A DNA stretch of 11,435 bases, from NCBI GenBank assembly GCA_028868455.1, contig JAGWUK010000041.1, forward strand, positions 1 to 11,435, given 5' to 3'. The DNA is from Burkholderiales bacterium. Its GTDB lineage: Bacteria; Pseudomonadota; Gammaproteobacteria; Burkholderiales; Burkholderiaceae_D. The translations under genes and the position numbers were made by a program. Below, in pieces: positions 2 through 11,389 of the stretch (positions are counted from its first letter, which is position 1; every line of letters begins with the position of its first letter). Below the pieces are notes generated by a model that was not told the origin of the DNA, searched no databases, and saw only the letters and a program-made list of their open reading frames with translations.

Positions 2-406
2 ATGGGCGGGCGCATCGGCTTGCTTACCCAGACCAGTCTGCAAGCGATGCCGTCGGCAAGCGGTCTGGTTACGCAGGCTGTTCCGGCAAACGGTCAATGG
101 CAAACTGTGCTGACTGGTTTAAACGCCTGCTACGCCTTTGAATTGCTGGCCTGTGCGCAGGGCCCTAACGGTAGTAAGAACAAGGCAATGGTCCACGCCA
201 TTATTCTGACGACATTTTCGGGTAAGCCATGTTCCATACGGTGTACGCATACCTATCAGGGATGGAATATTTTTCGACGTATGCGGGTGAAATGGAAAAA
301 GTCGGCAACTGGCTACGATTTGCTTATGCGTAGTGGGCATGATTTCGGCAAGGACGAGAATGGCAAACCCGTTCAGATTCAGTTTCATTTGAGCAGATTG
401 TGGTGA
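2..406 (+). CDS. C-terminal part of an unidentified protein, possibly an eCIS fibre or baseplate accessory (cut by window edge)
   Basis: The frame is open from the left edge to the TGA at 404-406, so the ATG at position 2 is probably internal and only about 134 C-terminal residues are visible. The segment looks like a compact beta-rich domain: the first ~35 residues are small and polar, then come the runs ACYAFELLACAQGP and MVHAIILTTFSG, an aromatic/basic stretch (TYQGWNIFRRMRVKWKKS), and a C-terminus of alternating hydrophobic residues ending in SRLW. No signal peptide, membrane segment or catalytic motif is visible. The stop lies 4 bp before the baseplate gene at 411, so it is probably in the same operon. 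Because no fibre gene sits between the baseplate and tape-measure genes here, a fibre or other particle-surface role is plausible, but that is inference from position. I do not recognise the family with certainty. Confidence 0.6.
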   Translation: MGGRIGLLTQTSLQAMPSASGLVTQAVPANGQWQTVLTGLNACYAFELLACAQGPNGSKNKAMVHAIILTTFSGKPCSIRCTHTYQGWNIFRRMRVKWKKSATGYDLLMRSGHDFGKDENGKPVQIQFHLSRLW

Positions 407-410
407 GACG

Positions 411-3293
411 ATGAGCAGCGAAACACATATTTCCAATGCCGCACCACCACTGCTGAGTATGCAGTTTTCAACACTGTTGAATAACGGCATCAGCGCCTGT
501 CAGGAAATGGGAGGCGATATATGGACAGACTATAACGAGCATGATCCCGGCGTTACCTGTCTGGAACAATTGTGTTACGCCTTGACCGATCTTGGCTATC
601 TTCTGGAGTTCAACGTCGCTGATGTGCTGGCAGAGTGCCCGCAGCAGCTCAAGGAAGGAAACACCAGTCTTTATACCGGTAATCGCATACTGACCTGCAA
701 CCCCTTAACCGCGCACGATTATCGCAAATTAATACTGGATTTCATGCGCTTTGATCGTGAGGGGGCAAACCGAAATTTCAAAAACGTCTGGCTGCAAGTG
801 CTTAGAGATGACACTGGCAAGTCCAGTGGACTGTATCAGATACAAGTCGAGGTCTACCAAACTGGCGATGGCTACGATAGCGGCAATATCGCCTTGCTGA
901 GCGATGTTATGTCGATATACCAGCAACACCGGAATCTGGCCGAAGATGCCGCGATGCCAGTCTTGCTGGAAATACTTGAAGTGACTGTCAAAGCGCAGCT
1001 TCAGATAGAGCCACTGGCAGACCCGAACCAGGTCATGGCAGATGTACTGTATGCGATACAGGAAAGCTTTTCTCATACGCCGCAAGTGCAGACGGTCGAT
1101 CAGCTGATACAAAAAGGCGTTCCACTGGATCAGATTTTTGATGGTCCTCTGCTGAAAAATGGGGTGGTTGATAACGCAGAATTGCAAGCTCTGCCAACCA
1201 TGATTACCGCGCAAAATCTGGCTGACATTATTCTCGCGACGCCAGGGGTACTGGCGATAGATAGTCTGGGTTTGTCGCTGTCAGATGGTATTCCCTGCTC
1301 CAGTATTGTTATACCGCCTTGCAATGTTGCGCGATTGCAGCCGGATATTTACCAGAAACCCGGCTCTGCAGATTGCTATCCGTTCACCTTAATACGTAAC
1401 GGATATACCTGTGCTTACGACGCTTTACTCGTCAGTCAAAAACTGATGCAAAGAGTGATCGATGAAGAAAAGGCGATGGCCTACGCCAGAATCACTATGG
1501 AAAGAGAGGACTACTGCCAGCTGGCGCCCGGATCGCGGCGTGACGTGGCGCAATATTTTTCTATCCAGAGACAGTTCCCCTTAACGTACGGTATTGGTGA
1601 ATATGGCGTTGCCCAGTTTGGCACAACGACGGAGTTGGAGGGCGACTTGCTCATGCGGCGTCAGGCGCAAGCCAAACAGCTCAAGGCTTACTTACTGTTT
1701 TTCGAGCAATTGCTGACCAACGCACTGAAACAATATCAACAGGCTGGTACCTTGCTCTCGCTCGACGCCAACCTGCATCAGAGCTATTTTTCACAATCGC
1801 TGGTGGGTGCAGCGACAGCAGAGATCGGGCCACCAGACATTGAAGAACTTTTCCGCGGACCGCAAGTGCAGCCCGCTTCATCAAGCATCTTCCTTGTGTA
1901 TCTGAAAGACCAAATCGCTCCGCACGAAGTCTTGCTGAGAAGCCGTGAAACTTCGTCGGCCGGCGCAGTGCAGGCTATCCGGGCCAACATGATTCAGTCA
2001 GGGCAATCTGACGAACACTTCAGCATACGTGCATTGCCAAATGCCGAATACCAGATTCTGTTGCACGCCGAAGGTGACCGCCAGGTGATCGCCTTCGGTG
2101 CTCAAAGATTCAATAGCCGCACTGCCGCAAGGGCGCAGATAGAGCAGATATGCACTTGTTTAAAAAATGCGACGGCAGAAGAACTTGCGCGCTGGGTCAA
2201 TATTCAGGAACGTGGAAAACTCGGCTTACGTCTAGTGAATGAAAATCTGGTTTTATTGGCTGCCTATGGCATGAACAAGCCACAGCAAGACCAATGTCTG
2301 ACGCAATTGATACGCTTCGGCGTTCATCCGGACAACTATAGGATTGAAAACGAAAGTAGAGGCGGATATCGTTTAACACTCTGCGACCGGCATCGTCAGG
2401 AGTTCATGCGCGGCGAAGAGGTTTTTGCCAGCGAAGACGATGCGGCACTGGCCGTGACGAGCCTGATCGCTTTGATACAAAGTCTTTGCTGCAATGCGGA
2501 TTTACAAGCAAAGCATATACAACGCTGGCCGGACACGGGCTCAGGTGGAGGGATATCACCGGTCGATTATTACGAACAGCAATTGACACGACTCGTGGCG
2601 GACTTCGATCCTTACACGCAAAGAAGAAATCAATTTCTGGATCATTTGTTAGCGCGTTTTTCCGAGGCATTTTATGACTCTGAGCTTGAGACGTTTGATC
2701 GCCGTTTTTCCAGACATCCTGATCAATTTCAGAAAGATCTGATCCGCAATAAAATCGATTTCCTGAAAAATTATGTCTACCCTTTGAATGATGAGGATAG
2801 TCCGATTTGTGCGGGAGCAGGGCGAAGTCAAGGTGCATATTTCGATACTGTCGATGTGTATCGCGAGCCGGGATTGGCACTGCGCTTACGCAAACTTTTA
2901 TGTATTCCTGATTCACCGGTACCGCAAACAGACGACGCCGATCAGCATTACGCCGGCGAAGAATTATTTGTTCTCGAACATATTTTATTGCGCACTTCTG
3001 ATGACGCCGAAAGCAAAATTTCAACGGGAACATCGTATCGGGTGTCCGTCGTCTTTCCTGGCTATCCGCTACGTTTCAGTAATCCGGAATTTAGGAACTT
3101 TGCCCATGACGTCGTGGCACAAAATTGCCCGGCACATCTGACCTGCACTTGCTCATGGATCAATCAGGCTGACATGGCGCAGTTTAAATCCCTATTTCAG
3201 CAGTGGACACGTTGCAAAGCCGCAGGACATAGCGACAAGTTAAATCAGCTGTCGTCTGAATTGAGTATGTTTTTGCAGCAGGTGGCCGTATGA
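411..3293 (+). CDS. eCIS baseplate protein, Afp12/PVC12-like (960 aa)
   Basis: Likely a large baseplate (wedge) subunit of the contractile particle. The strongest evidence is near the N-terminus: residues 37-48 read IWTDYNEHDPGV and are followed by a LEQLCYALTDLGY stretch, a signature of large baseplate proteins in phage-tail-like systems. Around residues 738-750 is RRNQFLDHLLARF. The C-terminus carries FVLEHILLR (about 853-861), YRVSVVFPGYP (876-886) and a PAHL motif (about 907-910), which I recall as conserved in the C-terminal part of eCIS baseplate proteins. Between these are two related segments (about 542-590 and 639-693), each a beta strand-rich stretch ending in an Ala-rich helix. No signal peptide or membrane segment is seen, as expected for a particle subunit. 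A GGTGAG at 402-407 is a closely spaced ribosome-binding site. The stop overlaps the tape-measure start (ATGA). Baseplate identity is well supported; the specific Afp12 equivalence is inferred from size, motifs and position. Confidence 0.85.
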   Translation: MSSETHISNAAPPLLSMQFSTLLNNGISACQEMGGDIWTDYNEHDPGVTCLEQLCYALTDLGYLLEFNVADVLAECPQQLKEGNTSLYTGNRILTCNPLTAHDYRKLILDFMRFDREGANRNFKNVWLQVLRDDTGKSSGLYQIQVEVYQTGDGYDSGNIALLSDVMSIYQQHRNLAEDAAMPVLLEILEVTVKAQLQIEPLADPNQVMADVLYAIQESFSHTPQVQTVDQLIQKGVPLDQIFDGPLLKNGVVDNAELQALPTMITAQNLADIILATPGVLAIDSLGLSLSDGIPCSSIVIPPCNVARLQPDIYQKPGSADCYPFTLIRNGYTCAYDALLVSQKLMQRVIDEEKAMAYARITMEREDYCQLAPGSRRDVAQYFSIQRQFPLTYGIGEYGVAQFGTTTELEGDLLMRRQAQAKQLKAYLLFFEQLLTNALKQYQQAGTLLSLDANLHQSYFSQSLVGAATAEIGPPDIEELFRGPQVQPASSSIFLVYLKDQIAPHEVLLRSRETSSAGAVQAIRANMIQSGQSDEHFSIRALPNAEYQILLHAEGDRQVIAFGAQRFNSRTAARAQIEQICTCLKNATAEELARWVNIQERGKLGLRLVNENLVLLAAYGMNKPQQDQCLTQLIRFGVHPDNYRIENESRGGYRLTLCDRHRQEFMRGEEVFASEDDAALAVTSLIALIQSLCCNADLQAKHIQRWPDTGSGGGISPVDYYEQQLTRLVADFDPYTQRRNQFLDHLLARFSEAFYDSELETFDRRFSRHPDQFQKDLIRNKIDFLKNYVYPLNDEDSPICAGAGRSQGAYFDTVDVYREPGLALRLRKLLCIPDSPVPQTDDADQHYAGEELFVLEHILLRTSDDAESKISTGTSYRVSVVFPGYPLRFSNPEFRNFAHDVVAQNCPAHLTCTCSWINQADMAQFKSLFQQWTRCKAAGHSDKLNQLSSELSMFLQQVAV

Positions 3294-6200
3294 GAAACGC
3301 GCCTGCACTGATCGTACAAACGCAGCGATTTGATTTGATTTTCGCGACCAAAGATGCGGCACGGCGTATCAGTGACAGGGTTAGTCGCTACGCCAGCAAT
3401 GAAATGCAAAAGGTGCTCGATGATGCCTGTCGTCCTTATCTATCAAAATCGTATTCCATTCCTTTGCTGGAGCTGGACATCGAACTGATTTCTGAAAATG
3501 CGCTTGAACAGGAGATGAGCGAAAAAATCAGAAAGGCGCTGACGACTTATCTGGCAGGTAAATTTGGTTTTCCATTGTCGCCTTATTCGGAAAGGCCAGA
3601 TGCTAAATCGACGGACGAAGTTTTATCGCAACTGTCTGCGTTGCTGCAGGGGCATATCAGCAAAGGGGAGTCGGACGATATCGGACATTTGCTGGTAACG
3701 GCGATCAGCACACAACCGCGGGATCTGATGCGTTTGTTGTATGCAATTGGGAAAAAACAAAATGTCCGTAACCGGCTTGCGCGCATGTTCGCCACGGAAC
3801 ATATGTATCGTTTGCTACGCCTATTGGCACCGGAGCAAGCCGCACTGATTATTGACTATAGCCTTGATGTGCTGGAAATCCATAGGAAAAAACCGATTGT
3901 TGCTGAATCAAGAGCAGAGTTCTCTCATGTTTTGTGGGAGTTTATCTTTACTTATATCTTGCTGGAAGAAGGTTCCTACTTCAACACCAAATCGCTGGTG
4001 ATGCACAGTTTGCGCAATATCGCTGCGCGTTACCGGATCTCTTATGCGCAACTGCTGCAGGATTTAAACCAGTGCATACAAATCCATCAAATTTCATTTT
4101 CGCAAAAACTCAGCCTGCCCAAAATATTATTGGATTTACAGAGCGAAGCACAGGCACCGGCAACAACAGCGACTTTGATTGTCAGTGATGCGCAAAGCAA
4201 ACTGGATCAGCTGGAATCATTTTTATTGCACGGCGTTTTCTCATGGCAACAAGGGACAACAGATCGCGCTACGCTGCACAATTTGTTGCAGGAGTTGATA
4301 GAACACATTCCCGATCAATTGCTGGCCAGTCTCCTTCGTCTTGGCGTCAATCCATCGGTACGTATGCGTATTGCGCAAAGCTGGGGATTTTCTGTGCAGG
4401 CGGCGTTGACCGGGCTAGTCGAACCCGCCCATGCGCGCGTGATTGTCAAATTGGTTCAAGCGCTGGCCGCATTGCAAATCAAACGACCTCTGGTGCAGCG
4501 GTCACATCGTCAGTTGATGGTGGATTTGTGGGAATTCGTCTGGACAAATTTGCTGTCGGACCGAGGATCCTATTTTAATCAGCGCAGTTTTGCCAAGGGC
4601 CTGCTGATGCAGATGGCAGCGCGCTACAACCTGGATTATGAACAACTGCTGTCAGATTTTTTTTCGATGGCCAGCCAGGAATTGGCGTCGAAAATAAGTC
4701 CCTCCAATGCTCCCGATTCCTTATTGAATATTCTGCTTTCGCTGAAAAAAGAACTTAATCACGACAGCGATAAGGTTTTGAATTTTGCTACGTCAGTTTC
4801 CTCCCCATCGGGGAAAAATCTGCAGTCGATGAACGATGTTAAGAGTGGTTTTGCTTTAGCGATGCGGGCGGTATTACTACGCCAGCATCTGTTGGCTGCC
4901 AGGTCTTATCTTGAGTTACGCGATCAACTCCGTTTGCTGGTGCAGTCGATGGCGGCACGCCATCATGTTGATGCCCGGCATTTGCTGTCGGCACTTGTCA
5001 CTGAACCGTCGCAAGTCCACGATCTTGCTTATCTGGACAGGGATGCCGTGAGCCAGATTCTGTTAGCGCTGCAAGATGACTATATCCAGGAGCATCGTGC
5101 CAAACACGCGCAACAAGAACTACAGGCGCCAGTGCCGACCGCCGTTCCGGATTGGAATCGTCCTTATCAATCCGCTGCCAGAGAATTTGTCGTGCAAAGT
5201 CTGATTTTGGACAGGGGCTCGTATTTCAACAATCGCTCGTATATCAAAAATCTGCTGCAAAAAATCGCCGCAAAACATGGCCTTCAATACCACTTTTTAC
5301 TGATGGGATTGAATGCCCGCAACAGCAATGCGGCTGTTTATCCGACGCGTCAGGATGAGTTACGCCGGATATTGGCGGATCTCGATGCCGAGAATAAATT
5401 GGAAGTCGTCACGCAGCAAGACTGGTTTGATTTTTATGAATTTGGAGAATTGCGTAACGGAACAATTTCCTATGCACAGCTGAAAAAGCATCATGCCGCA
5501 TTTTTTTCTAATACCGGCAATTTGCTTCTCTGGTTCAGACGCGCACAACACCAGCCACAAAAAATCCGCCACCTTCTGCGTTATATGAAGCAAGCAGATT
5601 TACTCCGCCTGCTGCAACTACTGAGTCCTGATTATGCCGGGTTCATCCACACCTTTTTGATGGCATGTGAAGACATGTCGCCACATCGAAAAGGGGCGGG
5701 AGCGGGTTTGCCGTGGGCGATCGTTTTGTATTCGTCGTCAGATGACCATTCGCCCAGGGTTTTTGACATGGTGCGTCAATGGACTGCGATGCTGGCAAGA
5801 GAGTTGAACTTGAGCAGGCGGACTTATTGCGAGGCCATGCTGCATGTGATCAGACAAAGGGAGGTATTGGAACCGCGCTTTATGCCCTTGAACGAAGCAC
5901 TGACGCAATTGTTGTCCGATGCTGCTCAAAATGAGGCCGAAGCATTTGCGCAGCAGCACGTTGCCGATGTTGACGGCGCGGGCGATACGGCTCAGCGGGA
6001 AATCCTGACTGATCAATCCGTCGATATGGTGGATGTCGCGGATGCTGGATACACCGATCAGGACGGTTTCACGACTTTGCCGTTGCTGCAATTTTATTTG
6101 CAATTCGGCAGTTTCCCGGAATCGGAAGTCCGGTCAAAACGTCAGGTCTGGGCCGCGATTGAAGCGGCAATGGATTTATCTCCGTCTGCGTTCCGCGCCA

Positions 6201-7189
6201 TGTTACATGCGGCGACGCGCCACGCAATGGAACGTCACAGGATGATCTCTGATGTGCCGGTTGCTGTCCTGGATAAATTGATGCGTGTGCTATTTGCTGC
6301 GGACTATGCATTGGTCATCGCGAATATCCGCTTGTGGCGGACGGTTCACGCAACATTGAAATGCCAGTTGCCCGCCTTGCAGATTGAGGAAGAAGTCGTG
6401 CGGCATGCTGGTCTGAACGAAGGCTGGGATGTGAAACAGTTTTCTTTGACAATGCTGTCCAGAACGTATCAAAAATACGCCAGCGACAAAGACAGGAAAC
6501 GCATTCTTCCTGCTGTGCTGTCGAGCCTGGAAAACCTGGATTTTCCAGAAAATATTTCTGGGCGTTTGCGTGCGGTCGTGCAGTCGATATCGCATGAACA
6601 TGTTGTCTCGTCGGCGCCAGAGGAAGACAGACCGCTTGCGGCCACACGTGCCAAACAAGTCGAAAAAGAAGAAAGTTTGCCAGCTGGCGAGAGTTTTTAT
6701 GTGGCCAATGCCGGTCTGGTCTTGCTATGGCAATTTTTGCCGGTGTTCTTTGAGCGCAGCGGTCTGGTACGCGAGCGACAGTTCATCGATTTTGAGTCGC
6801 AATGTCGCGCCGTCCTGTTGAGCCAGTTATTGGTGACGGGTGAGTTCGACGCCGAAGAGCATACGTTGTTGTTGAACAAAATTCTATGCGGAGTCGCGGA
6901 AACGGCGCCACTAGTCAGTTGTGCGGCGGTGACCGAGGCTGAGCAAACACTGGGTGAAGCCTTGCTACAGGCTGTCTGTCAGCACTGGGAAAAACTCAGC
7001 AATACCAGCATAGAGGGTTTGCGGCAAACCTTTTTGATGCGAAACGGCCGCTTGCAGAAAAAAGACGATGACTGGACATTGCTGGTCGAAAAAGGACCGT
7101 TCGACGTATTGCTGCAATCACTTCCCTGGACGATATCGACCATTCGCCTGCCGTGGATGAAGGGTAATTTATGGGTGGACTGGAAATGA
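3290..7189 (+). CDS. Contractile injection system tape-measure protein, Afp14-like (1299 aa)
   Basis: Expected to set the length of the inner tube during assembly. The C-terminal region is the best evidence: NAGLVLLWQFLPVFFERSGL begins at residue 1140, RAVLLSQLLVTGE at about 1172, HTLLLNKILCG at about 1190, and the last residues contain LPWTISTIRLPWMKG. This is the pattern of the CIS tape-measure family. The body is built from repeated helical units marked by a GSYFN motif at residues 228, 426 and 643, with a degenerate copy near 538. Two long units (about 110-266 and 307-461) align over their whole length. Residues about 877-924 form an Asp/Glu/Ala-rich linker. No membrane segment or signal peptide is evident. 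The start overlaps the preceding stop as ATGA with AGGTGG just upstream, so translation is probably coupled. Unlike Afp, where a fibre gene lies in this position, nothing separates it from the baseplate gene. An 8-T run occurs at 4657-4664. Confidence 0.9.
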   Translation: MRNAPALIVQTQRFDLIFATKDAARRISDRVSRYASNEMQKVLDDACRPYLSKSYSIPLLELDIELISENALEQEMSEKIRKALTTYLAGKFGFPLSPYSERPDAKSTDEVLSQLSALLQGHISKGESDDIGHLLVTAISTQPRDLMRLLYAIGKKQNVRNRLARMFATEHMYRLLRLLAPEQAALIIDYSLDVLEIHRKKPIVAESRAEFSHVLWEFIFTYILLEEGSYFNTKSLVMHSLRNIAARYRISYAQLLQDLNQCIQIHQISFSQKLSLPKILLDLQSEAQAPATTATLIVSDAQSKLDQLESFLLHGVFSWQQGTTDRATLHNLLQELIEHIPDQLLASLLRLGVNPSVRMRIAQSWGFSVQAALTGLVEPAHARVIVKLVQALAALQIKRPLVQRSHRQLMVDLWEFVWTNLLSDRGSYFNQRSFAKGLLMQMAARYNLDYEQLLSDFFSMASQELASKISPSNAPDSLLNILLSLKKELNHDSDKVLNFATSVSSPSGKNLQSMNDVKSGFALAMRAVLLRQHLLAARSYLELRDQLRLLVQSMAARHHVDARHLLSALVTEPSQVHDLAYLDRDAVSQILLALQDDYIQEHRAKHAQQELQAPVPTAVPDWNRPYQSAAREFVVQSLILDRGSYFNNRSYIKNLLQKIAAKHGLQYHFLLMGLNARNSNAAVYPTRQDELRRILADLDAENKLEVVTQQDWFDFYEFGELRNGTISYAQLKKHHAAFFSNTGNLLLWFRRAQHQPQKIRHLLRYMKQADLLRLLQLLSPDYAGFIHTFLMACEDMSPHRKGAGAGLPWAIVLYSSSDDHSPRVFDMVRQWTAMLARELNLSRRTYCEAMLHVIRQREVLEPRFMPLNEALTQLLSDAAQNEAEAFAQQHVADVDGAGDTAQREILTDQSVDMVDVADAGYTDQDGFTTLPLLQFYLQFGSFPESEVRSKRQVWAAIEAAMDLSPSAFRAMLHAATRHAMERHRMISDVPVAVLDKLMRVLFAADYALVIANIRLWRTVHATLKCQLPALQIEEEVVRHAGLNEGWDVKQFSLTMLSRTYQKYASDKDRKRILPAVLSSLENLDFPENISGRLRAVVQSISHEHVVSSAPEEDRPLAATRAKQVEKEESLPAGESFYVANAGLVLLWQFLPVFFERSGLVRERQFIDFESQCRAVLLSQLLVTGEFDAEEHTLLLNKILCGVAETAPLVSCAAVTEAEQTLGEALLQAVCQHWEKLSNTSIEGLRQTFLMRNGRLQKKDDDWTLLVEKGPFDVLLQSLPWTISTIRLPWMKGNLWVDWK
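3971..5321 (+). repeat. Diverged internal repeats in the tape-measure gene (GSYFN units)
   Basis: Three clear copies of a unit of about 37 residues start with GSYFNxxS at protein residues 228, 426 and 643 and continue through an AA(R/K)(Y/H)-containing helix to a LL stretch. A degenerate fourth copy (RSYLELRDQL) lies near residue 538. Distances of 198, 112 and 105 residues fit a basic period of about 100-110 residues with one unit skipped. The repeats are diverged at the DNA level, so this is an old duplication. Confidence 0.75.
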
Positions 7190-8502
7190 ATGCGCTGGCG
7201 AAAACTTTAGCCGCCGAACTGGATTGGGCTGCCAGGTTGATTGATGTTGCAATTCATCTGTATTTCGGACAGGAATGTGCCGAGCACGAAATTACCGACG
7301 TATTGCCTCCTGTTGTGGCGGCAGAAGAATCGGTCTACGCGGATTGCGTTCATGCGCTGAACTTTGATGCCAGGGCAGTATTGATCCTGGCCTTGATCCC
7401 GTATTTGCGCCCGCAATTGCTTGATCCATTCCTGATGAAAAACGAATTATATGGACGCAGCTTCACCGAATTTGGCGGAACGGTCAGTCCGGCTGGCTTT
7501 GCTCCTACGCTGGAAACAGCGGCGTTTGTTTTGGCAGGAAATAATCTGGAGCGCCGATTGCAATTGCAGCGCGCATTGAGTGATGCGGCGTTTTTTGACG
7601 GTCAGCTTTTGCTGGAAGATCTACCGGGACAGGTCGTTTTTTCGACACCACTGGTGGTGCGCAAGGAGCAACTGGCGCGGCTGACGACGGGCGAAAATTA
7701 TCATCCGGCATTCAATAATCATTTTCCTGCGCAGGCATTGACGACGGCGTTTGAATGGAGCGATCTGGTTCTCGACGATAACGTTATGGACGAGGTGGAA
7801 GACATTCGCGCATGGATACAGCATGGTACTTCGCTAATGGACGACTGGCATCTGCGGCGACAGATTAAACCGGGTTTTCGCAGCCTGTTTTATGGGCCGC
7901 CAGGTACGGGGAAGACCATGACTGCCGCCTTGCTTGGCAAGGTCTGCGGACGTGATGTATATCGCATTGATCTTTCTCTGGTCGTTTCTAAATACATCGG
8001 CGAAACGGAGAAAAATCTGGCTGGCGTATTTGATCTGGCGGCGCATCACGACTGGATTTTATTCTTCGATGAAGCCGATGCCTTATTCGGCAAGCGTACC
8101 CAGACTTCCAGCTCACATGATCGATATGCGAATCAGGAAGTCGCTTTTCTGCTGCAAAAACTGGAAGATTTTCCGGGCATCGTCATTCTGGCTTCTAACC
8201 TTAAAAGCAATATGGATGAGGCATTCGCCCGACGCTTTCAATCGATGGTGCAATTTCATTTGCCTGGCGTGGAAGAACGTTTGCGACTTTGGCGTCAGGC
8301 TTTTCAGGACACCGGGCGACTTGATGAGGCTGTCGATTTGCACAAACTGGCGCGGGAACACGAAATGAGTGGCGGCGCAATTATCAATGTGTTGCGTTAT
8401 TCCGCATTGATGGCTTTGCGCAGAAATGCAGACAAGGTGGGGTGGACGGATATCCAGCATGGTATCCGTCGTGAACAAAGAAAGGAGGGCAAGTTGGTGT
8501 AG
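7171..8502 (+). CDS. AAA+ ATPase of the eCIS, Afp15/PVC15-like (443 aa)
   Basis: A cytoplasmic AAA+ ATPase of the type found in nearly all eCIS loci, thought to act in particle assembly rather than being part of the finished particle. Walker A is GPPGTGKT at residues 242-249. Walker B is ILFFDE at 296-301 and is followed by ADALFGKR. Sensor 1 is probably Asn343 in the LASNLKSN segment, and the paired arginines at 354-355 (AFARRF) are the likely arginine finger. The run RIDLSLVVSKYIGETEKNL after Walker A is typical of this group. The N-terminal ~200 residues are a family-specific helical region with no recognised enzyme fold. Two in-frame starts are possible: ATG 7171, preceded by AGGG with 6-nt spacing, and ATG 7186, which overlaps the tape-measure stop as ATGA and is preceded by GGTGGA with 6-nt spacing. 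Either start gives a coupled gene. All key catalytic residues are present. Confidence 0.95.
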   Translation: MGGLEMNALAKTLAAELDWAARLIDVAIHLYFGQECAEHEITDVLPPVVAAEESVYADCVHALNFDARAVLILALIPYLRPQLLDPFLMKNELYGRSFTEFGGTVSPAGFAPTLETAAFVLAGNNLERRLQLQRALSDAAFFDGQLLLEDLPGQVVFSTPLVVRKEQLARLTTGENYHPAFNNHFPAQALTTAFEWSDLVLDDNVMDEVEDIRAWIQHGTSLMDDWHLRRQIKPGFRSLFYGPPGTGKTMTAALLGKVCGRDVYRIDLSLVVSKYIGETEKNLAGVFDLAAHHDWILFFDEADALFGKRTQTSSSHDRYANQEVAFLLQKLEDFPGIVILASNLKSNMDEAFARRFQSMVQFHLPGVEERLRLWRQAFQDTGRLDEAVDLHKLAREHEMSGGAIINVLRYSALMALRRNADKVGWTDIQHGIRREQRKEGKLV

Positions 8503-8779
8503 GCGGGTCAGCGCATATGGATGTCCCGGTGGAATAGGTTTCAAACGCAGTTGAAAAGGGGTGTAAGCAAAAGCACCTCAGCCACGTTATCGCGTCCGGT
8601 CGTATTTTTATGCCATCGCCGCTGTAGCTTGCTGGAGATATTTTGCTTAAGCCTCGGTAAACCAGAAGGCAGTTCTGATGTAGGGCGGTATGTTCACTGA
8701 GATTTTTCTCAGGTTTGTCTGTGATGTGAAGGCGTGGTTTTACTTTTAATTTTGCAGTAATTTTCAATGGAGAATGGAT
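8503..8779 (+). promoter_or_regulatory. Intergenic leader before the beta-propeller gene
   Basis: About 277 bp without a credible gene, the longest non-coding gap in an otherwise compact locus. The last ~60 bp are AT-rich. A -10-like TTTAAT lies at 8745-8750, but the matching -35 region is poor. An alternative pair is TTGTCT (8715-8720) with TTTACT (8739-8744), 18 nt apart and 4/6 on each element. A perfect 6-bp inverted repeat (CTGAGA-TTTT-TCTCAG) lies at 8697-8712 and could be a small hairpin or operator. There is no clear Rho-independent terminator for the upstream operon. An own promoter for the next gene is inferred mainly from the length of the gap. Confidence 0.35.
8769..8772 (+). promoter_or_regulatory. 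Ribosome-binding site deciding the start of the propeller gene
   Basis: GGAG at 8769-8772 abuts the ATG at 8774 almost directly, which is too close for initiation there. It is 7 nt upstream of the in-frame ATG at 8780, which is ideal. The 8780 start is therefore preferred. Confidence 0.75.
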
Positions 8780-9697
8780 ATGGCAACGACGAATACAGTT
8801 TCGACCAGTGCGTTTACGAAAATCACTGGCAGCATACCTACCGGAAAATCCGGCTCACCAGCAATCATTGCTTTGTACAACAACCAGGTCGTCAGCCTGG
8901 ACAATACGGCACCGGGTACGCAGTGGCGCAGCTCCAGTTCCGTGCCCGGCGCGGTTGGCGTGCCTGCCGGTATTACCGGTGATTACACCAATGGTGTCGT
9001 TGTCTATAGCGGCGCCAATGTCGCCTATCTGACAGGTGTCGGCGTCCCGGGTGCTAACTGGAACATCCTTCCTTCTCCGTTTGATAGTGACGGTAGTTCA
9101 GCCATACAAGGCATTACCGGCGATCTGATCAATGGGATCGTGGTCTACAGCGGGCGCAATTTGTATTCCCTGGTTTTAAACGGCGCGACGCCGGAATGGA
9201 ATCTGATGACGGTTGCTCCTGGCACAGTAACCGCAATTGCCGGTGATCCGACCAACGGTGTATTGATTGCGGTTGATCCAAGTGGTACAGGAACCGGGCC
9301 GTCTTCTTTGTATTCCGGTCAAGGCGGATGCCTGTGCCAATGGGCGCCGCTGACAGGGCAGGGATTACCTGTCGCTAAAGTAAAAATTGATTTCCTGTCT
9401 GGGAATTTCACCAATAATTTTATTTTCTATGGCGAAAATCAATTGTTTTCACTGACCGTCAAAAGTGGCGCCGGTACGCAGGCTAAATTATCGGCCTTGC
9501 CGTTCCAGGTCAAAGCGCTGTGCGGTGCCGCTGCCAACGGCATATTGGCAATCGCCGGTTCCGGTGATCTGATCGTTAGCAATGCTGATTCCAGCGCTGC
9601 TTCGTGGACAGTTGTGACGGTGAAATCAGCACCGCATTCTTCCAGCAAAGTGGGGCAACTGGCGAGCAATGAGTCTGCGGCAGTCAGCGTTGCCTGA
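8780..9697 (+). CDS. Putative small beta-propeller protein of the eCIS locus (305 aa), unassigned
   Basis: I do not recognise this protein as a standard eCIS component. It shows at least five related strands-and-turn repeats marked by an I-T/A-G-D/N-x-x-N-G-x-x-x-x-x-G pattern: ITGDYTNG at residue 65, ITGDLING at 112, IAGDPTNG at 153, LSGNFTNN at 206 and LCGAAANG at 247. A weaker copy lies around residues 29-50. Most units contain a strand such as VVVYSG or IFYGE, a following LYSL-like strand, and usually a Trp before the next unit. Unit length is 41-53 residues, consistent with a five- or six-bladed beta-propeller. The protein is rich in Gly, Ser, Thr and Ala, with no signal peptide, membrane helix or enzyme motif. 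The N-terminal ~20 residues and C-terminal ~25 residues are Ser/Thr/Ala-rich and probably flexible. It sits between the ATPase and cap genes. A role as binding protein, surface decoration or payload is inference. Confidence 0.75.
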   Translation: MATTNTVSTSAFTKITGSIPTGKSGSPAIIALYNNQVVSLDNTAPGTQWRSSSSVPGAVGVPAGITGDYTNGVVVYSGANVAYLTGVGVPGANWNILPSPFDSDGSSAIQGITGDLINGIVVYSGRNLYSLVLNGATPEWNLMTVAPGTVTAIAGDPTNGVLIAVDPSGTGTGPSSLYSGQGGCLCQWAPLTGQGLPVAKVKIDFLSGNFTNNFIFYGENQLFSLTVKSGAGTQAKLSALPFQVKALCGAAANGILAIAGSGDLIVSNADSSAASWTVVTVKSAPHSSSKVGQLASNESAAVSVA

Positions 9698-9715
9698 CCT
9701 GACGTAAACCAGGTG

Positions 9716-9761
9716 GCAAATCCGCCGATGACTGGTGGATTTGCTCTTGGATTTCTTTTTT
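9716..9761 (+). terminator. Possible Rho-independent terminator or attenuator after the propeller gene
   Basis: An 11-bp stem with one G-T wobble is formed by GCAAATCCGCC (9716-9726) and GGTGGATTTGC (9734-9744), with a 7-nt loop. A run of six T lies at 9756-9761. The T run starts about 11 nt after the stem rather than directly, so termination may be partial. It lies before the cap gene's ribosome-binding site and could lower readthrough into it or stabilise the upstream message. Confidence 0.5.
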
Positions 9762-9773
9762 GAGAGGCAAGAA

Positions 9774-10346
9774 ATGCTGGATCAGGCAATAAATTTACTG
9801 GTAGCCGAATTAAATGGTTTTCTGGGGGCACGTTTTCCGGGAAACGCCAATGTCGTCATTGCCTCGTCATTATGTAGTCCGGATGGTACGGTCTTGCCTG
9901 CCATCGACAACAAGGTCGTGCTGACGCTGGTGAACGTGGAACGCGAGACCGTCGTGGCACTGTCTAACTTTACGCCGTCCAGCGGCAGTGGATATGTGCG
10001 TTCCAGTCCACCTTTGTACTTGAATCTGTATGTACTGGTATCTGCATCCTTTGCGAGCCACTATACGACAGCGTTGCAATTATTAAGCAAAGTGCTGGGG
10101 TTCTTTCAGATCAAACCTAATTTTGATGCGCAGAATGCGCCGGAATTTCCGCCACAACTCAGTAAGCTCAGTGTTGAGCTGGTTAACCTGAATCTGACGG
10201 AGTTGAGCACTTTGTGGTCCACGCTGGGCATGGACTATATGCCTTCCATGTTATACAAAGTGCGCATGTTGACGATTCAGGATGGCTGGATTTCAGAGCC
10301 TGTTCCGCAGGTCAGTGCGCCCGACGCCAGCATCAACGGATCATGA
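9774..10346 (+). CDS. DUF4255 / Pvc16_N family protein, probable eCIS tail-terminator (cap), Afp16-like (190 aa)
   Basis: Proteins of this family cap the distal end of the tube and sheath and fix particle length. The start MLDQAINLLVAELNGFL is typical, followed by NKVVLTLVNVERE at residues 46-58, a hydrophobic strand LYLNLYVLVSASF at about 81-93, the helix TTALQLLSKVLGFFQ, and the C-terminal core LSTLWSTLGMDYMPSMLYKV (about 144-163). The last ~20 residues are a variable tail. An upstream GTG at 9735 would add 13 residues, but it lies inside the hairpin's right arm and lacks a ribosome-binding site; the ATG at 9774 has GAGAGG 6 nt upstream and matches the family's N-terminus. The length is normal for the short form of the family. 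The stop overlaps the next start as ATGA. Family assignment is strong; the cap function follows from Afp16/PVC16. Confidence 0.9.
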   Translation: MLDQAINLLVAELNGFLGARFPGNANVVIASSLCSPDGTVLPAIDNKVVLTLVNVERETVVALSNFTPSSGSGYVRSSPPLYLNLYVLVSASFASHYTTALQLLSKVLGFFQIKPNFDAQNAPEFPPQLSKLSVELVNLNLTELSTLWSTLGMDYMPSMLYKVRMLTIQDGWISEPVPQVSAPDASINGS

Positions 10347-11389
10347 GCTCATATACGCCCTGGATAAGTCTGCAAATTCAGCATGGTTATTATGCAGATA
10401 ATCTGGCTTCGCCTTTGCAGATCGCGCCGACTTCGGCGTGTGTGCAGTGGATGGCGCAGTATGGTTTGTTATTCCGCGCAGGCAAAGCGGGCGGGCAGTT
10501 GTATTACGCAGATGCGGATTTGCTTTTAAGCTTTGATACTCTTCAGCCGCTGGATTTTCAGGTGACTTGCACGGCGCCGGAATTTTTAAATCTGAGCGAT
10601 TTCGATGCAATGACACTCGGTGATCTCACTTTGGGATCAAGTATTTTTTATTTTGATAATCGGCAAAACAACAAACCGCAATTGTCGCCGTCTCTGAACG
10701 ACAGCGTATTGAAAGTACGTCCGCCGCAATTTGCCATACAACTGCAGGCCGGCCAGGCCGTCACTTACTCAATACGCGATAGTCTGGTGCAGGCCAGCGT
10801 CTGGAGCGGTGTTGCCGATGCCAATCATGTCTTGTATATAGACTTGCGAGAGCAGCCAGATGGGCGCTACCAGTTGTATGCTGGCGATCACTTGCAGGAA
10901 AATTTTTATCTGTGCCGGATACCGGCCAGCCAATGCTGGGGCGTCATCGCGATCTATCCCGGCGGCAGTGAGCAGCTTCCTTATTTGCAGCAAGGCTGTC
11001 CGGCAATTGTTAACGCTGATTTATTGAACCTGGCGTATGTTCTTACGTTGCAGGCGCGTACCTGTTTTTGGCGTTACAGAATATTTAGCCAATCGCAGGA
11101 CACGCATCATTATGACGATTATCAGGTGACCGGTAAGCAAAAAAATGGTTCAGGTCAGATTGCATTTTCGATGACAAAACCGGATGGCGACGGCGCACCA
11201 TGGATATTTGAGTCGGCGCTGCCTATTGCGATGGCGCAGCGGCCCGGAGACTGGGAGTTTTTTCTGTCCCGAAAACATGCCAGCAGTCGCCATAAGATCA
11301 GATTGCCTTATGCACAAGGCAAGTTACTGATATTGCCAGATGCCTCTGTACCAGCAAGAAAATACGCGGACATTTACGTTTATTTGTAA
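10343..11389 (+). CDS. Conserved-looking eCIS-locus protein of unknown function (348 aa)
   Basis: I cannot name this protein. The start at ATG 10343 overlaps the cap gene's stop (ATGA); an in-frame ATG at 10214 lies deep in the cap gene and is rejected. The sequence is beta-rich and soluble, with no signal peptide, membrane segment or coiled coil. The N-terminus WISLQIQHGYYADN, then YGLLFRAGKAGGQLYY and a strand-rich middle, suggests beta-sandwich domains. The C-terminal part has PGDWEFFLSRKHASSRHKIR and ends in ADIYVYL. Cysteines occur at scattered positions without a metal-site spacing. Tight coupling to the cap gene argues for a structural or assembly role in the same particle, for example in the collar, cap or sheath region. 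I have a vague memory of similar N-termini beside DUF4255 genes in other eCIS loci, but cannot confirm it. Confidence 0.8.
   Translation: MSSYTPWISLQIQHGYYADNLASPLQIAPTSACVQWMAQYGLLFRAGKAGGQLYYADADLLLSFDTLQPLDFQVTCTAPEFLNLSDFDAMTLGDLTLGSSIFYFDNRQNNKPQLSPSLNDSVLKVRPPQFAIQLQAGQAVTYSIRDSLVQASVWSGVADANHVLYIDLREQPDGRYQLYAGDHLQENFYLCRIPASQCWGVIAIYPGGSEQLPYLQQGCPAIVNADLLNLAYVLTLQARTCFWRYRIFSQSQDTHHYDDYQVTGKQKNGSGQIAFSMTKPDGDGAPWIFESALPIAMAQRPGDWEFFLSRKHASSRHKIRLPYAQGKLLILPDASVPARKYADIYVYL

What the first reader, a model, noticed from the sequence alone, without database searches (positions are those of the whole stretch)
8780..9697. Beta-propeller-like protein inserted between the eCIS ATPase and cap genes
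Five or six repeats of 41-53 residues with a G-D/N-x-x-N-G turn point to a small propeller. Such folds often bind sugars or proteins. It is the only gene here with its own long leader and a downstream hairpin, so expression may be independent. It could be a receptor-binding lectin, a decoration protein or a payload.
Basis: partly seen in the sequence, partly recalled or inferred. Interest (0 to 1): 0.75.

Follow-up and report, generated by a model that had tools for sequence, protein, structure and literature searches.

The report
Propeller protein in injection-particle gene cluster
This gene encodes a small protein with a predicted six-bladed propeller shape, of a new and narrow family seen so far only beside genes of bacterial contractile injection machines, and it is probably an optional part of a released syringe-like particle.

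Summary

All 13 distinct loci whose context could be read lie beside contractile-injection genes. Eight are eCIS loci: six between ATPase and cap, two (Trinickia) ahead of the sheath. Five are Hcp cassettes in one genus, inferred to be Janthinobacterium. In the family sample it occurs in 5 of 6 eCIS loci with a nearby cap gene and 0 of 24 with a distant one.

Best reading: an accessory particle component on the exterior, perhaps a decoration or adhesin. The members closest to the window are very poor in charge (others are not), conservation is like that of structural parts, and it has its own ribosome site and often a hairpin behind it. Cargo and tube/cap-end roles remain open. No lectin activity, location or partner is shown.

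The parts
8780..9697 (+). Stand-alone six-bladed beta-propeller gene, 305 aa (alternative start 8774)
8810..8962 (+). Blade 1 (residues 11-61)
   Evidence: AF2 strand order, limits by hand
8963..9103 (+). Blade 2 (residues 62-108), GDYTNG
9104..9217 (+). Blade 3 (residues 109-146), GDLING
9218..9385 (+). Blade 4 (residues 147-202), GDPTNG
9386..9502 (+). Blade 5 (residues 203-241), with Glu219, identical in all 24 aligned sequences
9503..9628 (+). Blade 6 (residues 242-283)
9629..9694 (+). C-terminal tail, low confidence (pLDDT below 50 from residue 286)
8503..8779 (+). 277-bp leader with Shine-Dalgarno GGAG at 8769-8772; no promoter-like site on this strand
9715..9745 (+). Hairpin between propeller and cap genes (13 pairs with G-T allowed in the scan; 12 pairs at 9716-9744 in the fold); gap 9698-9773 has z -5.14
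7171..8502 (+). eCIS AAA+ ATPase (Cis15/Afp15 type by position)
   Evidence: Pfam AAA E 1.1e-26; synteny
9774..10346 (+). Tube cap, Cis16A type (Pvc16_N), 190 aa
   Evidence: profile hits to four solved cap-type chains (9r9n_B, 7adz, 9wt1, 7b5i)
10343..11389 (+). Cap adaptor, Cis16B type
   Evidence: profile hits All3326 E 2.9e-17, SalCis16b E 3.5e-8, AlgoCIS cap adaptor E 0.012
3290..7189 (+). Tape-measure protein (CIS_TMP), 1299 aa
   Evidence: PF19268 E 3.1e-107
411..3293 (+). Probable baseplate protein (Afp12-like by position), 960 aa
   Evidence: homologues at the same place in relatives; TIGR02243 only far below its cut-off

Best explanation
The gene encodes a rigid six-bladed beta-propeller that is an accessory, attached component of one subtype of eCIS particle, the subtype whose cap and cap adaptor are encoded directly behind the ATPase. 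Shown here: propeller fold (predicted), position inside eCIS operons, restriction to this subtype and to Hcp cassettes in the genomes sampled, very low charge in the members nearest the window, conservation like that of structural proteins. Inferred: the protein is made as a separate cistron at its own dose, folds in the cytosol, attaches to the particle (possibly by its flexible C-terminal tail) and sits on the exterior, where its nearly uncharged surface shields the particle or binds a surface molecule of the target. The cap end is the likeliest site, by gene order only.
For: Context: 10 of 294 sampled genomes of the window's family have the gene; in all 10 it is beside a CIS gene, 5 in eCIS and 5 in Hcp cassettes. 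It is in 5 of 6 eCIS loci with a cap gene under 6 kb from the tape-measure gene and 0 of 24 with a more distant cap (Fisher 4e-5, not corrected for relatedness). In two Trinickia eCIS it is the gene before the sheath, and ATPase and cap are then adjacent. Mean identity (best local alignment) in the five systems nearest the window is 0.49, between sheath 0.64 and cap adaptor 0.42 / tape measure 0.41. Charge: the five propeller entries (four genomes, one gene listed twice) are the five lowest of 187 protein entries (4.6-8.3% K+R+D+E, median 19.3%); the window's is 7.9%. Over 8 systems its charge fraction follows the sheath best of 13 proteins (r 0.95), not the ATPase (-0.30) or tape measure (0.29). 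Downstream hairpin with z -2.49 or lower in 5 of 8 systems. In one Hcp cassette (G179) an eCIS-type sheath gene lies about 2 kb away, so these cassettes may derive from an eCIS.
Against: Low charge is not a family property: G054, both Trinickia and all five Hcp-type members have 14.7-17.9% charged residues. The charge correlation is mainly a contrast between groups; inside the five nearest systems it is 0.37, and 13 proteins were tried. Hcp cassettes have no cap gene nearby, and 4 of the 5 with a propeller have no eCIS-type sheath nearby, so an exterior eCIS role does not explain why the gene is kept there. Downstream folding is weak or absent in 3 of 8 systems (z -1.7, -0.7, +1.0). A similar eCIS (G037) lacks the gene, so it is dispensable. 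There are no data on particle content, location or ligand.
Confidence: 0.44

Rival explanations
1. Cargo: the propeller is loaded into the inner tube and delivered into the target cell, where it binds a host molecule; the Hcp-linked form travels with Hcp.
For: In the genus inferred to be Janthinobacterium it is encoded near an Hcp gene, and the cassette varies between genomes at one site: Hcp+TMPc+propeller in L021, L022 and (TMPc broken) L023; Hcp+propeller in L024, L025; Hcp+TMPc without propeller in L040, L042. Such variation is common for effectors (general knowledge). The genomes carry T6SS genes. The gene is dispensable in eCIS too: G037 lacks it.
Against: No catalytic domain or toxin family was matched. 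It lies inside the core operon; eCIS toxins tend to lie downstream of it (PMC11297309, passage). No shared N-terminal leader is visible in A2. The G844-type cargo candidates have ordinary charge (16.5-24.8%). In G179 a sheath gene lies near the cassette, so the cassettes may be eCIS leftovers rather than effector cassettes.
Confidence: 0.25
2. Tube- or cap-end assembly part: a pseudo-sixfold propeller docks on a sixfold ring (tube end, cap or Hcp) as plug, spacer or chaperone.
For: The settings share a hexameric tube or cap system: eCIS cap, start of the eCIS sheath/tube genes, Hcp. Six blades would fit a sixfold axis. AlgoCIS ends in a hexameric cap and cap adaptor (PMC8894135 passages), and genes of these two types follow the propeller here. 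One fold match is the assembly factor Ycf48 (its role recalled).
Against: Symmetry is an argument from shape only; no complex was modelled. G037 has tape measure, ATPase, cap and cap adaptor in the same order without it. The cap gene is adjacent in 6 of 8 eCIS loci only.
Confidence: 0.2
3. Immunity protein: the propeller neutralises a co-encoded effector, as a predicted propeller does in an hcp-vgrG operon of Proteus mirabilis (PefE).
For: PefE is a predicted propeller with immunity function in an Hcp operon (PMC5714391 and PMC3764213, passages). The Hcp-linked copies are in a similar setting.
Against: No effector gene is next to it in the window. In G054 and Trinickia dinghuensis no relative of the G844 cargo candidate was found in the stretches held (similarity to one query only). 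It goes with the particle operon, not with one effector.
Confidence: 0.05

Closest known systems
eBAP3 eCIS tail fibres with beta-propeller lectin domains (PMC12923769, passages seen)
   Same: Beta-propeller encoded in an eCIS locus, thought by the authors to bind glycans
   Different: There the propeller is a domain of a fibre with a shaft; here it is a separate 305-aa protein without a fibre part, between ATPase and cap genes
AlgoCIS cap module Alg16A/Alg16B (PMC8894135, passages seen)
   Same: The window has a cap and a cap-adaptor gene of these types directly behind the propeller
   Different: No propeller component is named in the passages seen; the AlgoCIS plug Alg6 is a strand and helix protein in the spike
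PefE, predicted propeller in a Proteus mirabilis hcp-vgrG operon (PMC5714391; PMI0756 of PMC3764213 taken to be the same; passages seen)
   Same: Propeller encoded with Hcp
   Different: PefE is an immunity protein with variable regions, predicted 7-bladed in one paper; its sequence was not compared here; no eCIS setting is described in the passages
Ycf48, kelch (Keap1, KLHL12), NHL and LRP-type propellers
   Different: 7-15% identity and no convincing profile match to any such family; fold only

Membership tests
Six-bladed beta-propeller fold | Six four-stranded blades round an axis | tested here: met
   [not shown]
Pfam propeller families (kelch, NHL, BNR/Ycf48, WD40, PQQ) | Profile match at the curated cut-off | tested here: not met
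   0 families for the window protein at E up to 1; of 24 members at E up to 0.1, 2 match PQQ_2 (best E 0.021), 1 NANM (0.016), 1 DsbC_N (0.06)
eCIS particle component | Gene within an eCIS structural operon | tested here: met
   sheath-to-baseplate genes of the same genome on contig C753, not shown to adjoin the window
eCIS particle component | Protein present in purified particles | not testable with these tools
   needs mass spectrometry
eBAP3 propeller-lectin fibre | Propeller fused to a fibre shaft | tested here: not met
   The model is one propeller plus short disordered ends
Glycan-binding lectin | Binds sugar | not testable with these tools
   needs glycan array
eCIS cargo (DUF4157 / ATPase-loaded) | DUF4157 (eCIS_core) domain | tested here: not met
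   No Pfam match at E up to 1; none in 24 members at E up to 0.1
eCIS cargo (DUF4157 / ATPase-loaded) | N-terminal loading signal | tested here: inconclusive
   N-termini differ in length and share no motif in A2; the published signal score was not run
T6SS Hcp-operon immunity (PefE-like) | Cognate effector beside it | tested here: inconclusive
   Neighbours in the window are ATPase and cap; in the Hcp cassettes DUF6150, Hcp and often a CIS_TMP C-domain, of which DUF6150 has no known function

The most novel reading that the evidence does not exclude
The propeller is a portable accessory of contractile tubes as such: one small family serves both a released eCIS particle and a T6SS Hcp tube by docking its six-bladed ring on the sixfold end or lumen of the tube, often together with the C-terminal domain of the CIS tape-measure protein. 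That would be a component shared between extracellular and cell-bound contractile machines.
Probability: 0.13. Interest if true: 0.75.

Novelty: new variant of a known kind. Interest (0 to 1): 0.5.

Why it matters
How eCIS particles choose targets and what closes or decorates their distal end is poorly known for most subtypes. A gene that marks one subtype, is missing from one close relative, sits in two places of the operon and also turns up beside Hcp gives natural presence/absence pairs for testing by deletion, particle mass spectrometry and cryo-EM. If exterior, it is a small binding module separate from the tail fibre; if luminal, it is a cargo or plug that eCIS and T6SS may share.

Tried and rejected
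Family libraries: Pfam, PHROGs, NCBIfam and PADLOC gave nothing convincing for the propeller or the relatives tested. PDB sequence search gave two chance hits at E about 1 with the single sequence and none with the 24-row profile. Viral contigs: 21 pattern matches but no relative, and no pattern match for an Hcp-type member. Plasmids: no match. Order sample of 399 genomes with A2: only the window's own genome. These genome searches score only a few first-look candidates per genome (7, 5), and the second protein search scored only the 7997 candidates sharing most words, so the counts of relatives are lower bounds. Rfam: nothing at E up to 1 in 8450-9850.

Considered and put aside: an unrelated passenger gene (rejected: same place in six eCIS loci); a Tsi1-like or PefE-like immunity protein (no effector recognised beside it); a sialidase-type enzyme (no such family matched; catalytic residues not tested). 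My first gene-calling script picked antisense frames in GC-rich loci and was replaced by a codon-usage caller. Some ORFs in the charge table are extended at the 5' end, mainly in the ATPase, cap and adaptor rows, so those rows are rough. The window propeller was not assigned; its charge value comes. The 187 entries include genes held in two overlapping loci.

Rows left out of the count: of 45 genomes with CIS_TMP, I entered the best long match of 34. The 11 left out have only a short, orphan or broken match (G146, G125, G182, G157, G110, G237, G253, G009, G244, G256, G262). Of the 34, 4 have no cap match on that contig (G005, G186, G192, G287), leaving 6 + 24.

The same check showed a sheath gene beside the cassette of L024, followed up; for that I moved the exterior reading from 0.42 to 0.44, cargo from 0.27 to 0.25 and the novel case from 0.15 to 0.13.

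Full report

Neighbours. Upstream are an AAA ATPase (Pfam E 1.1e-26) and a CIS_TMP tape measure (E 3.1e-107); downstream is a 190-aa Pvc16_N protein. A profile of that protein from eight loci hits four solved chains of cap type, among them AlgoCIS cap and Anabaena All3327 (E 1.3e-33 to 3e-21). A profile of the next gene hits Anabaena All3326 (E 2.9e-17), SalCis16b (3.5e-8) and, weakly, the AlgoCIS cap adaptor (0.012). So the order is ATPase - propeller - cap - cap adaptor. The window appears to be a whole contig of its assembly. Sheath, two tube genes, LysM tube protein, spike, PAAR, gp25 and a baseplate gene lie on another contig of the same genome, C753. The eCIS therefore looks complete, although the two contigs are not shown to adjoin.

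Names. G171 and G230 have contigs of the same length as the records Massilia sp. TS11 and Janthinobacterium sp. 344, and G219 as that of a protein named Massilia endophytica. The Hcp-cassette genomes share the genus code g6 with G230, so I call them Janthinobacterium by inference.

Relatives and their settings. Of 294 sampled genomes of the family, 10 have the gene and 45 have CIS_TMP. Five of the ten, the window included, have it between ATPase and cap. The other five, all g6, have it in a cassette at one chromosomal site: DUF6150 - Hcp (PF05638) - CIS_TMP C-terminal domain - propeller (Pfam on L021; Hcp also on L022 and L024; others by similarity). The parts vary: L021 and L022 hold all four; in L023 the TMP domain is broken; L024 and L025 lack it; L040 and L042 have it but no propeller. 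Of 13 genomes tested, 12 have the T6SS gene TssF, the exception being the window's own. In L024 (G179) an eCIS-type sheath gene (43% identical to the Trinickia sheath; best PDB match E 1.9e-159) lies about 2 kb from the cassette. That genome has no CIS_TMP, Pvc16_N or eCIS spike match, and G146, G237, G092 and G157 have no match to this sheath at all. The cassettes may thus be relics of, or recruits from, an eCIS. A pattern scan of 84,980 species genomes found five loci, two of them the same as family loci. The three new ones are Massilia rhizosphaerae (between ATPase and cap) and two Trinickia species, where the gene lies 77-79 bp before the sheath and the cap follows the ATPase by 8 bp. That makes 13 distinct loci, all beside contractile-injection genes. 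An order sample of 399 genomes added none.

Subtype. In 30 genomes a cap match lies on the contig of the best long tape-measure match. In 6 the two lie within 6 kb, and 5 of those have the propeller; in 24 they lie 9.8-22.6 kb apart and none has it there (Fisher 4e-5; genomes are related, so this is indicative; 15 of the 45 CIS_TMP genomes dropped out, as listed under Tried and rejected). The one exception, G037, has tape measure - ATPase - cap - cap adaptor without a propeller.

Clues to function. (1) Charge. The five propeller entries (four genomes) are the lowest of 187 protein entries: 4.6-8.3% against a median of 19.3%; the window's is 7.9%. The database members P0001-P0014 have 3.8-9.3%, but G054, Trinickia and the Hcp-linked members have 14.7-17.9%, which is not unusual. 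Over eight eCIS systems the propeller's charge fraction follows the sheath's (r 0.95) better than that of 12 other proteins, and not the ATPase's (-0.30) or tape measure's (0.29). This is mostly a contrast between the five systems nearest the window and the other three; within the five it is 0.37. I read it as weak evidence for exposure on the particle. (2) Conservation. Mean identity among those five systems is 0.49, within the range of the particle's own proteins (0.38-0.90), which is not what a fast-changing toxin would show. (3) Expression. Three of the four other junctions in the window overlap, but this gene has a 277-bp leader and a 76-bp trailer with a strong hairpin. In eight systems the downstream gap folds at z -5.14, -3.37, -3.12, -2.99, -2.49, -1.68, -0.68 and +1.02. 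The six upstream ATPase-propeller gaps give z -0.88 to 1.41. A dose set apart from ATPase and cap is plausible; a promoter was not seen. (4) Glu219 in one B-C loop is identical in 24 of 24 rows and breaks the blade repetition, so it is a candidate contact residue. (5) Of 19 members outside the Hcp cassettes 13 end in Ala, several after a long Ala/Pro stretch, which could be a docking tail.

Weighing. An exterior accessory component explains the low charge of the nearest members, the conservation and the subtype restriction. It does not explain why the gene is kept beside Hcp, which fits cargo or a tube-end part better unless those cassettes are eCIS relics. I give the exterior reading 0.44, cargo 0.25, tube/cap assembly 0.20 and immunity 0.05. 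That it is a propeller belonging to contractile-injection loci I hold at about 0.9.

Literature. Beta-propeller lectins are described as domains of eCIS fibres (PMC12923769, passages). A predicted propeller in an Hcp operon is the immunity protein PefE (PMC5714391, PMC3764213, passages). Tsi1 resembles a fragment of a propeller (PMC3391265, passages). The loading ATPase and N-terminal signals of cargo are described in PMC11495950 (passages). The eCIS surveys PMC8213781 and PMC11297309 have no occurrence of the word propeller in the main text. Searches for contractile injection with propeller, with tape measure and Hcp, T6SS Hcp effectors with propeller and DUF6150 listed no paper whose title or start of abstract describes this family; only open-licence papers are held, and I saw listings and passages, not whole texts.

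Noticed in passing
L021:9007-9537, L022:10467-10997, L040:9240-9779, L042:9459-10013; solitary in L038, L039, L041, L043: Stand-alone C-terminal domains of the CIS tape-measure protein (154-205 aa), four of them directly behind an Hcp gene, with no other eCIS gene found in the roughly 20 kb held.
   Followed up: partly
L024:12778-14589 (G179): A solitary eCIS-type sheath gene about 2 kb from the Hcp-propeller cassette, in a genome without CIS_TMP, Pvc16_N or eCIS spike match; a DUF4394 gene lies between.
   Followed up: partly
[not shown]
   Followed up: partly
window 3290-7189: The tape-measure gene gives three separate CIS_TMP matches, and long relatives have open frames of about 1100 to 2600 aa, many with several matches, as if repeat number set ruler length.
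   Followed up: no
L079-L082 and L085 against L078, L083, L084: In the five eCIS systems nearest the window the sheath is low in charge (10.6-13.6% against 16.6-18.3% in the other three with a propeller), and one baseplate protein too, while tape measure and ATPase hardly differ.
   Followed up: partly
L002:15385-20757: A protein of 1791 aa or more, close behind the eCIS of Massilia rhizosphaerae, matches a ubiquitin hydrolase (UCH) and a poly(A) polymerase head domain: a candidate cargo aimed at eukaryotes.
   Followed up: no
window 2-406: C-terminal 134 aa of a protein cut by the contig end; relatives of about 280 aa sit near baseplate genes in L069 and L075. Unknown function.
   Followed up: partly
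G219:C1:1537789-1539465: A match to the T6SS gene TssF lies about 17 kb from the eCIS propeller gene of Massilia endophytica, with a weak VgrG-like match in the same region (L045).
   Followed up: no
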